Shown here: piece after piece, positions 617 through 39,670 of the stretch
How the letters are laid out: every line of letters starts with the position of its first letter
Numbering within the stretch: the first letter of the stretch is position 1
Source: Stigmatella erecta
GTDB taxonomy: Bacteria > Myxococcota > Myxococcia > Myxococcales > Myxococcaceae
DNA: 64,000 nt
Reading direction: 5' to 3'
Assembly: GCF_900111745.1 (NCBI RefSeq)
Contig: NZ_FOIJ01000022.1
Location: 1-64,000 of the forward strand
Position numbers and translations under genes: made by a program
Notes under the pieces: generated by a model
Database searches by the model: none
Told to the model about the DNA's origin: nothing
The model's input: only the letters and a program-made list of their open reading frames with translations

Positions 617-1366
617 TCATGTGACCTTCGAGCCGTACACTTCGACATCGACGAGGCGCCGGCCCTTCTTTGCCTGGGCCTGCCATTGCTTCTCGAAGCC
701 GAACCAGTCATCGCCCACCCACAAGGCCTGAGAGTAGGTGCCGGTGCGGAAGACGCCGGCGTAGCGGCGGGTCCTGCCGTCGAGCCACGTCTCCAGGTCA
801 ATCAGCCGCAGGTTCTTCTTCGCCAGCTCCTTCCACTTCGCTTCGAAGCCGTCCCAGTCGTCGCCCACCCACAGGGCCTGCTCGTCGGTGCCGGTGCGGA
901 AGACGCCAGCGTAGCGGCGGGTCTTGCCATCGAGCCACGTCTCCAGGTTGATCAGCCGCAGGTTCTTCTTCGCCAGCTCCTTCCACTTCGCTTCGAAGCC
1001 GTCCCAGTCGTCGCCCACCCACAGGGCTTGCTCATCGGTGCCGGTGCGGAAGACGCCAGCGTAGCGGCGGGTCTTGCCGTCGAGCCACGTCTCCAGGTCA
1101 ATCAGCCGCAGGTTCTTCTTCGCCAGCTCCTTCCACTTCGCTTCGAAGCCGTCCCAGTCGTCGCCCACCCACAGGGCCTGCTCGTCGGTGCCGGCCTCGA
1201 AGACGCCGGTGTAGCGTTGCTTCGAGTCGACGGCATACGTCTCGAAATCGACCAGGCGCAGGTTCTTCTTCGCCAGCTCCTTCCACTTCTTGTCGAAGCC
1301 ATCCCAGTCATCGCCGACCCACAACGCTTGCTCCTCACTGCTGTCGGAAAACACGCCGGCATACCG
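617..1366 (-). repeat. Five tandem 150-bp coding repeats
   Basis: The same landmark (GAAGCC-type sequence at the start of the GFEAKW coding block) recurs at 691, 841, 991, 1141 and 1291, an exact 150-bp period. The middle copies are almost identical in DNA, while the outer two have diverged. This pattern points to recent duplication or gene conversion in the centre of the array. Confidence 0.9.
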
Positions 1367-2188
1367 GACTCCGGCACTGGTCTCGATCAGGTGCTTGCGC
1401 GTCTTGTGATGGACGGTGGTGCGAATCACCTGCACCTGCTGCGGCGACACGGTCACTGGCGGATGGCACCTGTTGTAGTAGCTCATCAGGTTCAGGCGAT
1501 CCGGCTTGAACGTGATGCCTTCGATCTTGAAGCTCGCCGGGCCACCGCAGAGGTCGTTGCTCACGTTGGCCGTGTAATAAGCGACGCAGCAGTCAGGGGC
1601 GGTATCGGTCAGCAGGTCGCCGTCGAGTCCGTCCGCCCCCTGTTCCTTGACCAGCTCGATGACCTTCTCGACGCTGGTCGTCCCCCAGCCCGGATGCGTA
1701 TGGAACAGGCCGAAGTAATGACCGAACTCATGCGCAAGGACAGCGCCGGTCCCAGCGGTGCCGGCGAACCTCGAGGACTGGTTGGTGATCGCCACGAAGT
1801 CGATGTTCTCGTGCGGCAGCTTCGCCAGCGGCGGCTGCTTCTGGCCGGTGTCGGGGGGGTACGCGAACCAGTTGCTCGCGGACTTGTCTGGATCGGCGCC
1901 CCAACGCAGAAACACCGTGAACTGGCCACGAATCCCGGCCGCGACCTCGTTCGCCTCCTTCCACCACTCTGATTTGCCGCCGTTGCTGAGCCGGTTCAGC
2001 GAGGTGCTCTTGCGTGGATGCCAGTCCTTTACCGGATCGAAGGTAAAACGCAGGTTTGCCTGCTCGAAAATATCGTTGACGGTTTCGAGCGCGCTCGCGA
2101 AAGCCTGAGGTGTGACGCTGCAGGAACGGGAGCCGTCGTCATCGGACAAGGGAATCGCATGGATGCGAATTGTATAGGTGACAGCCAT
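617..2188 (-). CDS. Metzincin-type metalloprotease with five C-terminal 50-residue repeats
   Basis: A 523-residue protein with a zinc-protease motif HEFGHYFGLFH (HExxHxxGxxH, about residues 153-163) and a likely Met-turn in LNLMSYY near residue 235, an arrangement seen in M43 (pappalysin-like) and related metzincins. From about residue 275 to the end there are five 50-residue repeats with the core YAGVFRTGTDEQALWVGDDW, resembling the bacterial tandem repeat found in polyglycine hydrolases. They probably form a substrate- or surface-binding array. The ATG at 2188 has a strong GAGGAG site; an upstream in-frame extension to 2332 lacks one. No signal peptide is seen at either start, which is odd for a predicted extracellular protease. 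Substrate unknown. Confidence 0.85.
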   Translation of the reverse strand: MAVTYTIRIHAIPLSDDDGSRSCSVTPQAFASALETVNDIFEQANLRFTFDPVKDWHPRKSTSLNRLSNGGKSEWWKEANEVAAGIRGQFTVFLRWGADPDKSASNWFAYPPDTGQKQPPLAKLPHENIDFVAITNQSSRFAGTAGTGAVLAHEFGHYFGLFHTHPGWGTTSVEKVIELVKEQGADGLDGDLLTDTAPDCCVAYYTANVSNDLCGGPASFKIEGITFKPDRLNLMSYYNRCHPPVTVSPQQVQVIRTTVHHKTRKHLIETSAGVRYAGVFSDSSEEQALWVGDDWDGFDKKWKELAKKNLRLVDFETYAVDSKQRYTGVFEAGTDEQALWVGDDWDGFEAKWKELAKKNLRLIDLETWLDGKTRRYAGVFRTGTDEQALWVGDDWDGFEAKWKELAKKNLRLINLETWLDGKTRRYAGVFRTGTDEQALWVGDDWDGFEAKWKELAKKNLRLIDLETWLDGRTRRYAGVFRTGTYSQALWVGDDWFGFEKQWQAQAKKGRRLVDVEVYGSKVT

Positions 2189-2441
2189 GGTTCTGCTCCT
2201 CGTTCCTGCGCCGGCACGCAGGGATGGCGCGAACACCGCCGTGCCCGTGGTGCTCTCGATGCGGCAGGTGCCGCCGTGGAGAGAACAAACCTGGCTGCGC
2301 GGGCAGTCCCGGCACCATCCATCCTGAGACAATGGGTGGGCGGAAGGGCGGCTTGAACAGGCGTATCCCCCCGAGTCCGCTCATGCAGGCGCAAACCTGC
2401 TAATTTCCCGGCCGGTCTCGCCACGCGGCACAGGAGAAACG

Positions 2442-4846: not shown

Positions 4847-5236
4847 TTGAACGAGGCCGAGCGTCGCGCGGTGGAAACGGTTGAGAACGCCCAGCGGGCC
4901 ATGGAGCGCGGAGACATCCCCGGGTTCCTGGCGCACTTCGCCGAGGATGGCATGGTGAATGACCCCTTGGCCCCCGCAGTGGTGGGCCGGGCGGGCCTCG
5001 AGCAGTGGCTGCAGGGGCTGCTGGCGGTCTGCTCCAAGGTGGAGATGTTGGAATTGAAGCCGTTTGCCTCGGGGCGGAACGTGGCCGTGAAGGTCACCCT
5101 CCGGCTGGTGGGGCGCAACGGCCGGACGGCCACCGCCGAGGCCATTGACGTTTTCGAATTGGACGAGAGCTTCCGGATCCAGAAGATGACCGCGTACTGG
5201 GATCCTGCGCCCGCCATGCAAGCCCTGATGGGCTAA
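4847..5236 (+). CDS. SnoaL-like / NTF2-fold protein
   Basis: A 129-residue protein with the features of the NTF2-like (SnoaL, ketosteroid isomerase) fold: an N-terminal helix with ERGDIPGFLAHFAEDG, a central hydrophobic core, and a C-terminal strand with KMTAYWDP. Members are small cyclases, isomerases or binding proteins. The best start is a TTG at 4847, seven bases after GAGGAG; an upstream ATG at 4763 would add an unlikely Pro-rich leader. It is followed 25 bases later by the FAD monooxygenase, so the two are probably co-transcribed. Confidence 0.8.
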   Translation: MNEAERRAVETVENAQRAMERGDIPGFLAHFAEDGMVNDPLAPAVVGRAGLEQWLQGLLAVCSKVEMLELKPFASGRNVAVKVTLRLVGRNGRTATAEAIDVFELDESFRIQKMTAYWDPAPAMQALMG

Positions 5237-5261
5237 ACCGGGCGCAAGGGGCATCCACACC

Positions 5262-6641
5262 ATGACGATGAACACCGGCGCTTTTCCACGTTCCCAGCGG
5301 GCCGCCGTCATTGGCGGGGGCATGGCGGGCCTGCTGGCCGCGCACGTGCTGGCAGAGCACTTCGAGCACGTGGTGCTCATCGACCGGGACGAGTTTCCCA
5401 CCGCCCCGGAGCCCCGGGTGGGCGTGCCCCAGGCCCGGCACGCCCACCTGTTGCTCACCCGCGGCAGGAAGCTGCTTGAAGAGATCTTCCCCGGCCTGAC
5501 GGCGGAGCTCACCGCGGCGGGGGCGTGGCCGGTGGACGTGACGAAGGACTTCGTCTTGCACAACCTGGGCTACGCGATGCCCCAAGTGGCCTCCCAGGGC
5601 CAACTGCAGACGCTGACGTTGAGCCGGGACCTGCTGGAGTGGGCGGTCCGCCGCCGCCTGAATCCGAAGATCTCCTTCCAGACGGGGTACGCGGTGGAGT
5701 CCCTGGTGCACGATGCCGCCACCTCGCGCGTCATCGGCCTGCGCGCGGTGCGCAACAAGCCCTCGGCGGACGGGCAGCGGGAGGCCCTGGAGCTGCCCGC
5801 GGACCTGGTGGTGGATGCCAGCGGACGGGGCTCGCTGGCGCCCCGGTGGCTGGAGACGCTGGGCTATGGCGCGCCCCGGGAGACGGTCGTCAACCCGTTC
5901 GCGGGCTACGCCACGCGCTGGTACCAACTGTCCCCGCGCACCTCCTGGCACACGCTGGTGGTTCACGAGCGCCGCACGGGCACGATTCTCCGGGTGGAGA
6001 AGGACCTGGGCATCGTGACGCTGGTGGGCACAGGCAAGGACTACCCGCCCACGGACGAGGCGGGCTTCCTGGAGTTTGCCCGGAGCCTCTCGCTGCCGGA
6101 GTTTCACGAGACGCTCCTCAAGTCGGAGCCGCTCTCCCCCATTCACGGCTTCCGGAAGACGGAGAACCGGCTGCGTCACTATGAGAGCCTCGAGCGCTGG
6201 CCCGAGGGCTTCCTCGTGCTGGGCGATGCGGCGTGTACGTTCAACCCCGCCTATGGCCAGGGGATGACGCTCAGCGCCAGCACCGCCCTGCGGCTCAAGG
6301 ACTGCCTGAAGCAGCAGAAGCGCGATGCCTCGGGCATCGCGCTGAAGGGCCTGGGACAGCGCTTCCAGCGGCTGCTGGCCAAGGACTTCCGGCTGCCGTG
6401 GCTGATGGCCACCAGCGAGGATGCCCGCGTGCCCGAGGTGACAGGCGCGCAGGTGACCGCCTTCAGCAAGGTCGCCCAGCGGTACATGGACGAGGTGGTG
6501 GCGCTCGCGGCCCAGCGGCCCGAGGTCTACATCGCCTTCTTCTCCGTCATCCACATGGTGAGCCCTCCCGAGCGCCTGTTTCACCCCAGCATCCTGCTGC
6601 GGGTGCTCCCCCGCATGTTCCGGGAGAAACGGGAGGGGTAG
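5262..6641 (+). CDS. FAD-dependent monooxygenase/oxidoreductase
   Basis: A 459-residue flavoprotein of the geranylgeranyl-reductase/squalene-epoxidase/PHBH-like fold. The ADP-binding motif VIGGGMAGLLAA sits near residues 17-28, and the second FAD motif GDAACTFNPAYGQGMT (Gly-Asp plus substrate-side loop) is near residue 325. The length fits single-component flavin hydroxylases. The start at 5262 has only a weak AAGGGG site. With the P450, reductase and SnoaL-like protein it forms a four-gene oxidative set. A halogenase is less likely, because the usual WxWxIP motif is not seen. Confidence 0.9.
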   Translation: MTMNTGAFPRSQRAAVIGGGMAGLLAAHVLAEHFEHVVLIDRDEFPTAPEPRVGVPQARHAHLLLTRGRKLLEEIFPGLTAELTAAGAWPVDVTKDFVLHNLGYAMPQVASQGQLQTLTLSRDLLEWAVRRRLNPKISFQTGYAVESLVHDAATSRVIGLRAVRNKPSADGQREALELPADLVVDASGRGSLAPRWLETLGYGAPRETVVNPFAGYATRWYQLSPRTSWHTLVVHERRTGTILRVEKDLGIVTLVGTGKDYPPTDEAGFLEFARSLSLPEFHETLLKSEPLSPIHGFRKTENRLRHYESLERWPEGFLVLGDAACTFNPAYGQGMTLSASTALRLKDCLKQQKRDASGIALKGLGQRFQRLLAKDFRLPWLMATSEDARVPEVTGAQVTAFSKVAQRYMDEVVALAAQRPEVYIAFFSVIHMVSPPERLFHPSILLRVLPRMFREKREG

Positions 6642-16596: not shown

Positions 16597-16737
16597 CCGT
16601 CTCTCACAAGCGGGGCCTGGCGGGCGCCGGAAACGGCGGCCGCTGAAACACAGGCACATGGAGCGTCACCGGACGGGGATGTTTCGTGTATCCCCTGTCT
16701 TGAGGAACTCGACACCAGCGCGAGAACCGGAGCCGCC

Positions 16738-38137: not shown

Positions 38138-38176
38138 AGGGTGAAGGGGCACCATGCCCCTTCACCCTTCTTTTTT
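38138..38176. terminator. Strong hairpin terminator shared by convergent genes
   Basis: AGGGTGAAGGGGC (38138-38150) and GCCCCTTCACCCT (38156-38168) pair perfectly over 13 bp around a five-base loop, followed on the plus strand by TCTTTTTT. It ends the clpS-clpA transcript. The stop codon of the minus-strand citrate synthase-like gene (38162-38164) lies inside the right arm, so the element overlaps coding sequence. Confidence 0.9.
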
Positions 38177-39112
38177 GGCCTCCACGTAGCGGGCCCGGGG
38201 CCGCAGCACGTGGCCCTGCTCGCGCTGCTCCAGCACGTGGGCCACCCAACCCGCGGCGCGCCTCACCGCGAACAGCGCCGTGGCCGCCCCCCGGGGCAAG
38301 CCCAGGACCGCCGCCAGCGCCACCAGTCCGAAGTCCACGGTAGGCGGCGGGTGCCCTTCTTCCCGCATGGCGTCCGCCACCGCGCGCGCCACCCGCACCG
38401 CGAAGGTCGAGACGTTCAGCTCGTGGTCCGCGCAGAGCACCAGGGCCCGGTCGAGCAGCCCGGCCGCGCCCCGGGCCTTCACCCCCCAGGCCTGCACCAG
38501 CCCCGCGGCCAGGGAGTCCTGCGCCAGGGCCTCGGCCACACGGCCGGGTCCCTGAACCGCGCCCACCCAGGCGCCCAGCAGCCGGAGCAACCGCCGGGCG
38601 CGAAGCCATTCCTGCTCGGGGGACGCCGCGAAACGCACGGAGTCCGCAGCCCCCAGCAGGGGCACCACCGCGGAGAGCACCGCCAAGGGAGGCGCCTCGG
38701 CGGGGAGCAGGCCCTTCAGCGCCGAGGGGAGAAAGGGCAACGGCGGCGCGGGCCACCGCACGACAGCCGCCGGCAGTTGCCCTGTCCACAACAGCTCCGT
38801 CACCGCCTCGAAGGAGGCTCCGCGCGCCACCATCTCCACCGCCAGGTGGCCCCGGTAAGCCGCGCCCCGCGCATCGATGCGCGTCACGGAGGAGTCAATC
38901 ACGGGCTCGCCCCAGCGCAGCGCGCCCGAGGCCACCGCCGCATGCCCCGCCCGCGCATCGTGCCGGACCTTCAGCCGCTCCAGGTCCATGCGCACATAGC
39001 GGCTCTGCTTCGTCCCCTTCTGCGGAACGCACCGCACGAGGCCCCGGCTCACGTACGTGTAGAGCGTCGTCCGCTTGATGCCCAGCAACGCCGCCGCCTC
39101 CGTTGCGGACAC
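38162..39112 (-). CDS. HTH-citrate synthase fusion lacking part of the active site
   Basis: A 316-residue protein. Residues 1-55 are an HTH_17/MerR-like DNA-binding domain (AAALLGIKRTTLYTYVSRGL), and the rest is a citrate synthase fold. The first catalytic His (ADHELN, equivalent to pig His274) and the Asp (TVDFGL, equivalent to Asp375) are present. The segment between them that should carry GPxHGGA (His320) and the substrate-binding GFGHP loop is absent, so STFAVRVARA passes straight to DAMREEGHPPPTVDF. The whole domain is about 100 residues short. Start GTG at 39112. A citrate synthase activity is unlikely; it is either a degraded gene or a ligand-sensing regulator. Confidence 0.75.
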   Translation of the reverse strand: MSATEAAALLGIKRTTLYTYVSRGLVRCVPQKGTKQSRYVRMDLERLKVRHDARAGHAAVASGALRWGEPVIDSSVTRIDARGAAYRGHLAVEMVARGASFEAVTELLWTGQLPAAVVRWPAPPLPFLPSALKGLLPAEAPPLAVLSAVVPLLGAADSVRFAASPEQEWLRARRLLRLLGAWVGAVQGPGRVAEALAQDSLAAGLVQAWGVKARGAAGLLDRALVLCADHELNVSTFAVRVARAVADAMREEGHPPPTVDFGLVALAAVLGLPRGAATALFAVRRAAGWVAHVLEQREQGHVLRPRARYVEAKKEG

Positions 39113-39251
39113 CGCTCCTCATGTCGATGGTCGAATCGAGATTGGGAACGCCCCCCTCTGCGCTTCACCATGATGACCGAAGCCTCCTCGACAGGAAGTG
39201 TCGGCGCGATCCGCCGGGGTGTCGAGACGGGGCGAACCCGCTGGAGCCCTC

Positions 39252-39670
39252 ATGCCCTCCCCTCACCTCATCCACGAATCGGAGCTGTCCTGGACGGACA
39301 TCACCCACGGCTACCACCTCGCCAACGAGGAGGCGATCTATGTGCTCGCCGGCCAGGGCTCCCTGCGCCTGGGGGAGGAAACGCTGCCGCTGAAGGCCGG
39401 GGACTACGTCGCGCTCCCGGCGGGCCCCGGCACCGCGCACCAGCTCTTCAATGAGGGGCCCGAGCCCCTGCGCTACCTGGCCCTCTCCACCATGCAGGCC
39501 CCGGACATCGTCATGTACCCGGACTCGAGGAAGGTGGGCGTGTTCGGCGGCGCGGCGCCAGGGGAGACAAGGCCGCGCGCTTCCTGCATGCCTACCTCCC
39601 CCTGGCCGCCGAGGTGGACTACTGGGACGGCGAGAACACGGGCGAGCCGGAGCCTGGCACCGGCGGGTGA
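39252..39670 (+). pseudogene. Cupin-domain protein with a frameshift and an internal gap
   Basis: The frame from the ATG at 39252 (GGAG seven bases upstream) encodes a cupin: YHLANEEAIYVLAGQGSLRLG, cut here as YHLANEEAIYVLAGQG, then GDYVALPAGPGTAHQLF and YPDSRKVGVFGGAAPG. At the G run at 39561-39564 the family continuation (GGDKAARFLHAYLP and VDYWDGE) moves to another frame; adding one G restores it to a TGA at 39668-39670. The uncorrected frame runs to 39716 with a non-family tail. The N-terminus also goes from WTDITHG directly to YHLAN, lacking about 35 residues of the usual first cupin strands. A sequencing error is possible for the frameshift. Confidence 0.75.

What the first reader, a model, noticed from the sequence alone, without database searches (positions are those of the whole stretch)
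38162..39112. HTH-citrate synthase fusion missing the second active-site histidine region
The ADHELN His and VDF Asp remain, but the segment with GPxHGGA and GFGHP is absent while the frame stays open. That is what one expects of either a precise in-frame deletion or a domain turned into a ligand-binding regulator.
Basis: partly seen in the sequence, partly recalled or inferred. Interest (0 to 1): 0.5.

Follow-up and report, generated by a model that had tools for sequence, protein, structure and literature searches.

The report
Broken DNA-binding citrate synthase gene
A myxobacterium carries a recently damaged copy of a gene for a citrate-making enzyme joined to a DNA-binding domain; its close relatives carry the gene whole, and the intact family looks like enzymes that may switch their own genes.

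Summary
In detail: ORF 38162-39112(-) is an HTH-citrate synthase fusion (HTH-CS) lacking, in frame, the segment with GPxHGG and GFGH. Against the nearest relative (G003) 92 codons (276 bp) are missing. All six same-genus genomes have the gene full length; of 66 same-family genomes carrying it, 63 have it full length in one match, one is open with an insert, two are truncated (hand count). The divergent cupin gene next door has a 108-bp and a 1-bp deletion. Best reading: recent decay of a dispensable gene pair, not a domain turned into a regulator. An assembly error is unlikely but not excluded.

The intact family is more interesting: it occurs in several phyla, its active-site residues are nearly invariant, 47 of 98 loci hold a second citrate synthase (45 on the opposite strand), and a DNA motif recurs upstream (75 of 93 regions; shuffled mean 3.65). 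That suggests a DNA-binding citrate synthase controlling its own promoter; binding is untested.

The parts
38162..39112 (-). Remnant HTH-citrate synthase ORF, 316 aa from GTG
38966..39112 (-). Helix-turn-helix part (HTH_17 / MerR_1), residues 1-49
38387..38914 (-). First piece of the citrate synthase domain (PF00285 positions 3-192), ends after ADHELNVSTF
38195..38392 (-). Second piece of the citrate synthase domain (PF00285 positions 287-357), with VDF and the C-terminal arginines
38396..38404 (-). Junction of the 276-bp in-frame deletion
   Evidence: break between alignment pieces
39112..39114 (-). Site of the 1-bp deletion that shifts the frame between the relatives' start and the HTH
39049..39171 (-). 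40-codon frame from the conserved ATG, ending at a stop inside the HTH region
39123..39145 (-). Candidate operator CCAATCTCGATTCGACCATCGAC (TCAATCTCGATTCGAC in most near relatives)
39252..39670 (+). Remnant of the divergent cupin gene: 108-bp deletion at about 39310 and 1-bp deletion at about 39564 against G003, G005, G004
   Evidence: Cupin_2 in the intact G003 copy

Best explanation
The ORF is a recently decayed copy of a full-length HTH-citrate synthase gene. A 276-bp deletion removed the part of the catalytic domain that carries two catalytic histidines and four whole helices of the predicted fold; a 1-bp deletion cut the HTH frame off from the relatives' start codon. The neighbouring divergent cupin gene is damaged too. 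Shown: the four deletions, their absence from the closest relatives, the undamaged genes around. Inferred: loss of function, illegitimate deletion near a short GC-rich repeat as the mechanism, and dispensability as the reason. The intact family most likely works as a DNA-binding citrate synthase that controls its own promoter (inferred from the motif) according to binding of oxaloacetate, an acyl-CoA or the product in its citrate synthase domain (inferred, no direct evidence).
For: All six same-genus genomes have the gene full length. In the phylum search (195 genomes searched of 400 asked) 66 same-family genomes carry the gene by my hand count: 63 full length in one match, G117 open with a low-complexity insert, G000 and G136 truncated. 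In 12 of 12 near relatives the frame runs on upstream to an ATG 20-21 codons before the HTH; the window's frame from that ATG ends after 40 codons. Cupin gene: 108-bp and 1-bp deletions against three relatives. In the collinear stretch 16713-60246 aligned to G003 the only two large window deletions are these, and by crude gene calls the frame-changing small indels other than 39113 and 39564 lie outside genes, at a stop codon (25508), or sum to 15 bp (around 45412). The residue before the R401-equivalent is Gly, Ala or Ser in 97 of 98 others (one gap) and Arg in the window. A second, independent remnant without the HTH half is in G136, and G141, G142 and G154 of the same genus as G136 have no match at E 1e-40.
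Against: Both large deletions (276 and 108 bp) are multiples of three, which random deletions give one time in nine. On the window branch I count 9 synonymous and 9 nonsynonymous changes, on the G003 branch 5 and 6: no clear relaxation, so decay must be recent or not the whole story. The window-G003 ratio for this gene (0.37) is above its neighbours (0.02-0.12), but the gene's ratio is high between intact relatives as well (0.23-0.25). The deletion junction lies just before the shared 9-10 bp repeat, not within it, so slippage on that repeat is not a clean fit. The ORF keeps a start codon, the HTH and nearly all of the motif. Expression is unknown and only one assembly of this strain was seen.
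Confidence: 0.8

Rival explanations
1. Assembly or sequencing error: the strain's gene is intact and the contig is wrong.
For: Two of the four differences are single bases, one of them in a short run of one base. No reads or second assembly were available.
Against: Two separate large deletions and two 1-bp deletions fall in one 1.5-kb gene pair while the genes around read through without frame breaks over 43.5 kb. The repeat at the junction is 9-10 bp, too short to be collapsed by an assembler (general knowledge). The window lies inside a 133,735-base contig, not at its end.
Confidence: 0.12
2. Functional truncated regulator: the 316-aa protein is made and acts as an HTH repressor that no longer responds to acyl-CoA, or responds to another ligand.
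For: Open frame of 316 aa with HTH; both large deletions keep frame; no clear relaxation of selection on the branch; the motif at 39123-39145 is intact but for one base; the truncated model keeps high confidence outside the junction (mean pLDDT 85.6; residues 232-242 below 50), with relatives in the alignment that could themselves raise it.
Against: The relatives' start is frameshifted off; GAGGAG lies only 2 bases before GTG 39112 (sequence), closer than usual (general knowledge). Four helices are deleted and fold matches weaken: best TMq 0.69 for an intact relative, 0.56 with rmsd 9.1 for the window model. The neighbouring gene is damaged too. No other genome shows the form.
Confidence: 0.07
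3. A deliberate variant: the frame is bridged by programmed frameshifting, or the product works as a partner subunit of another citrate synthase.
For: The genome has one other, full-length citrate synthase at C1:928562.
Against: No such arrangement in any relative seen; the other citrate synthase is ordinary and has no motif within the 4086-base locus examined.
Confidence: 0.01

Closest known systems
HTH_17 + Citrate_synt (PF12728 + PF00285) fusion proteins
   Same: Same domain order, same locus beside clpA in G003, G005 and G004, remaining active-site residues conserved
   Different: The window copy lacks 92 codons with two catalytic His and the DPR Arg, and is frameshifted from the relatives' start
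2-methylcitrate synthase / citrate synthase II (TIGR01800; structures 3tqg, 6s6f, 3hwk)
   Same: Best NCBIfam match of the window protein, and closest sequence or fold relatives of the citrate synthase part
   Different: Those entries were not reported to carry an HTH; the window protein scores 94.5 bits against a cut-off of 421.3
Caulobacter crescentus CitA, CitB, CitC (PMC7083601; passages read)
   Same: Extra citrate synthase genes with consecutive locus tags (CCNA_03757 citB, CCNA_03758 citC); CitB restores an E. coli gltA mutant and CitC does not; CitA regulates the cell cycle independently of catalysis
   Different: The text has no occurrence of helix-turn-helix or HTH; whether CitC is an HTH-CS was not checked here, so the link is only a lead

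Membership tests
Active citrate synthase (PF00285) | Pfam gathering score | tested here: met
   120.3 bits against 27, in two stretches
Active citrate synthase (PF00285) | Catalytic His of GPxHGG and of GFGH, Arg of DPR | tested here: not met
   Absent in the window. In 98 other HTH-CS sequences: GPxH His 96 (2 gaps), GFGH His 93 (2 gaps, 3 substituted), DPR Arg 96 (2 gaps)
Active citrate synthase (PF00285) | ADH histidine, VDF aspartate, C-terminal arginines | tested here: met
   Present in the window
HTH-citrate synthase family | HTH_17/MerR-like domain followed by PF00285 at the orthologous locus | tested here: met
HTH-citrate synthase family | Full-length frame from the conserved start | tested here: not met
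Pseudogene | Disabling lesions absent from relatives | tested here: met
   276-bp deletion and 1-bp frameshift
Pseudogene | Relaxed selection on the lineage | tested here: inconclusive
   9 synonymous and 9 nonsynonymous changes on the window branch, 5 and 6 on the G003 branch
Pseudogene | No functional product | not testable with these tools
   No expression data
DNA-binding (trigger) enzyme, considered for the intact family | Conserved DNA site at its own gene | tested here: met
   CAATCTTGAT or CAATCTCGAT with at most one mismatch in 75 of 93 upstream regions against a shuffled mean of 3.65 (maximum 7 in 20 shuffles); exact in 51 of 93 against 0.3 (maximum 1). The motif was found on these same, partly related sequences, so the figures are not a blind test. 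The longer 25-base consensus scores 15 or more of 20 in 51 of 93 and in 0 of 279 shuffles, but the named Myxococcaceae loci score only 13-14, inside the shuffled tail
DNA-binding (trigger) enzyme, considered for the intact family | Shown DNA binding and shown catalysis | not testable with these tools
   Needs bench work

The most novel reading that the evidence does not exclude
The intact HTH-citrate synthases form a class, not described in the papers my searches reached, of DNA-binding citrate synthases found in several phyla: enzymes with a complete active site that control their own promoter, and often that of a divergent second citrate synthase, through a TCAATCTYGATT-type operator, with occupancy by oxaloacetate or an acyl-CoA as the signal. 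The window strain is a natural loss of that switch.
Probability: 0.45. Interest if true: 0.65.

Novelty: new member of a known kind. Interest (0 to 1): 0.3.

Why it matters
By itself it is a broken gene, useful mainly as a warning that an open reading frame with intact flanking motifs is not evidence of a new regulator. It also points to a large family in which a central-metabolism enzyme carries a DNA-binding domain and a candidate operator at its own gene. If binding is shown, how cells sense oxaloacetate and acyl-CoA supply directly with a citrate synthase becomes testable in laboratory species.

Tried and rejected
Considered and rejected: (1) a conserved truncated subfamily: in the 195 genomes the only other truncated copy (G136) lacks a different part, and among the 98 sequences the other gaps (L083 frameshift, L050 contig end, L110 28 columns) are of other kinds. 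(2) The GTG at 39112 as the ancestral start: several relatives have CTG, CTC or GTC there and need the upstream ATG. (3) The motif at the own canonical citrate synthase: not found in locus L001. (4) A regulon: with up to 2 mismatches the pattern TCAATCTCGATTCGACNNTCNAC occurs in 10 of 39 genomes, once in nine of them, at HTH-CS, and three times in G013. (5) Literature: nine paper searches listed no paper on an HTH-citrate synthase; subscription papers and preprints are not held. (6) Strain name: genomes bear handles only; the genome-contig scan may leave out the window's own record, and named relatives there are Myxococcaceae (Myxococcus, Pyxidicoccus, Corallococcus, Citreicoccus).

Errors on the way: one search read minus-strand loci in the wrong orientation and was redone; the ADH column was set one residue off (Asp) and was corrected; the script failed (BLAST gap settings) and was rerun. 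Rows dropped: from 98 loci the motif count left out L050 and L083 (fragments), L054 and L058 (taken as copies of L039 and L043 from their contig lengths) and one with less than 260 bases upstream, leaving 93; L069 was dropped from the fold alignments because its reference ran into the stop. The dN/dS control used five neighbour genes; clpS and the cupin were left out.

Full report
What is there. The ORF 38162-39112(-) encodes 316 aa: an HTH of the HTH_17/MerR_1 type (residues 1-49) and a citrate synthase domain. The PF00285 match is in two pieces that abut in the window, with profile positions 193-286 missing. The ADHELN histidine, VDF aspartate and C-terminal arginines are there; the GPxHGG and GFGH histidines and the DPR arginine are not. 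The genome (9.2 Mb, 47 contigs) has one other PF00285 gene, full length, at C1:928562.

The deletion. In 59 genomes searched with the protein, all six same-genus genomes match in two stretches separated by the missing segment, in one open frame. Aligned with 17 such genes, the window lacks 92 codons (276 bp) directly after NVSTF. In the relatives this is the more constrained part: between L034 and L035, 9 nonsynonymous differences per 196 sites in the segment against 56.7 per 676 outside it. In G003 the two ends share CGGGTGGCG in the same codon phase; the junction in the window lies just before that repeat, so simple slippage on it is not a perfect fit. In the predicted fold of an intact same-genus relative (L054, mean pLDDT 88.9), four helices (269-280, 288-299, 302-314, 334-344) fall wholly within the deleted stretch (258-349 in the numbering of L034, taken as the same in L054).

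The second lesion. In 12 of 12 near relatives the reading frame continues upstream of the HTH for 20-21 codons to an ATG. The window has that ATG (39171), but GAGGAGCTGGTG reads GAGGAGCGGTG: one base is missing, and the frame from the ATG stops after 40 codons. The 316-aa ORF can begin only at the GTG at 39112 or later, with GAGGAG two bases away.

The neighbour. On the other side, divergently, lies a cupin gene. In G003, G005 and G004 it is intact (175 aa match; Cupin_2); in the window it has lost 108 bp in frame and one base of a G run, and only residues 57-143 match. The flanking genes compared (clpA, rsgA, a methyl-accepting protein, cheB, a GNAT-like gene; names from my reading, not a search) are 97-100% identical to G003. 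Over 43.5 kb collinear with G003 (16713-60246) the two large deletions are both in this pair; the small frame-changing indels other than 39113 and 39564 fall outside genes by crude calls, at a stop codon (25508), or sum to 15 bp (around 45412). The stretch begins at a break: about 1.0 kb present in G003 is absent from the window at 16713, and left of it the two genomes are less collinear.

Selection. The window-G003 dN/dS is 0.37 for this gene and 0.02-0.12 for five neighbours, but intact relatives also give 0.23-0.25 for it. Polarised with G005 and G004, I count 9 synonymous and 9 nonsynonymous changes on the window branch and 5 and 6 on the G003 branch. This does not show relaxed selection; it fits recent lesions. 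One change is telling: the position before the R401-equivalent is Gly (87), Ala (8), Ser (2) or a gap (1) in 98 others and Arg in the window.

How common is it. In the phylum search (195 genomes; threshold E 1e-40) I count by hand 66 same-family genomes with the gene: 63 full length in one match, G117 open over two stretches with a low-complexity insert, and two truncated, G000 and G136. G136 keeps only residues from about 276 on, plus a weak 16-residue piece, next to what looks by eye like the cupin gene. G141, G142 and G154 of the genus of G136 have no match. So loss recurs, but this form was not seen elsewhere.

The intact family. In 98 sequences the GPxH histidine is kept in 96, the GFGH histidine in 93, the VDF aspartate in 95, with 2 gaps each; L060, L094 and L130 have Q, N or T at the GFGH position. 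In 47 of 98 loci a second citrate synthase without this HTH lies next to it, on the opposite strand in all but L106 and L130; its key residues are also conserved. Upstream regions share CAATCTTGAT/CAATCTCGAT: 75 of 93 with at most one mismatch, shuffled mean 3.65; exact 51 of 93, shuffled 0.3; 113 matches in 1,046,236 bases of the remaining sequence. In proteobacteria it is part of TCAATCTTGATT-N5-AATCAAYA. In Myxococcaceae the shorter core lies at a fixed place inside the first codons; there the long consensus scores only 13-14 of 20, which shuffles reach too, so the link between the two forms rests on the core. The motif was found on the same sequences and many are related. In nine of the ten genomes with a match to the myxobacterial form it occurs once, at this gene; in G013 three times. 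A site at its own promoter suggests autoregulation; binding, ligand and activity are inference.

Known or new. The domain combination is made of two known Pfam families. Nine paper searches listed nothing on an HTH-citrate synthase. The nearest experimental lead is Caulobacter citB and citC, consecutive locus tags, of which CitB but not CitC restores an E. coli gltA mutant (PMC7083601, passages); whether CitC is an HTH-CS was not tested here.

Verdict. A real deletion in a gene that is otherwise also broken: decay with confidence 0.8, assembly error 0.12, working truncated regulator 0.07. In the draft I gave the family-level reading 0.5; after noting that the long consensus is not significant in Myxococcaceae I put it at 0.45.

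Noticed in passing
window 39252-39670: Divergent cupin gene damaged by a 108-bp and a 1-bp deletion relative to G003, G005 and G004.
   Followed up: yes
window 39123-39145 and upstream regions of 93 HTH-CS loci: Conserved motif CAATCTYGAT upstream of or at the start of HTH-CS genes in several phyla, a candidate operator.
   Followed up: partly
L045-L131 (47 of 98 HTH-CS loci): Second, HTH-less citrate synthase gene beside HTH-CS, on the opposite strand in 45 of the 47.
   Followed up: partly
L135 (G136:C1:8118000-8128000), about 5200-5690: Another truncated HTH-CS, keeping only the C-terminal part.
   Followed up: partly
G013:C1:1242185 and G013:C1:9966662: Two further sites matching the operator pattern with one mismatch, away from HTH-CS.
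   Followed up: no
L060, L094, L130: Full-length HTH-CS members whose GFGH histidine is replaced by Q, N or T: candidates for non-catalytic members.
   Followed up: no
G113, G114, G118, G119, G123, G124, G125, G127: Eight same-family genomes of genus g43 list two full-length HTH-CS copies each.
   Followed up: no
window about 16713: About 1.0 kb present in G003 is absent at this point of the window.
   Followed up: no
window about 654-1367, inside ORF 617-2332(-): Alignments to G003 repeat at offsets of 150 bases, suggesting a tandem repeat of about 50 codons.
   Followed up: no
L083 (Nannocystis exedens): HTH-CS is split over two frames; possibly an error of a long-read assembly.
   Followed up: no
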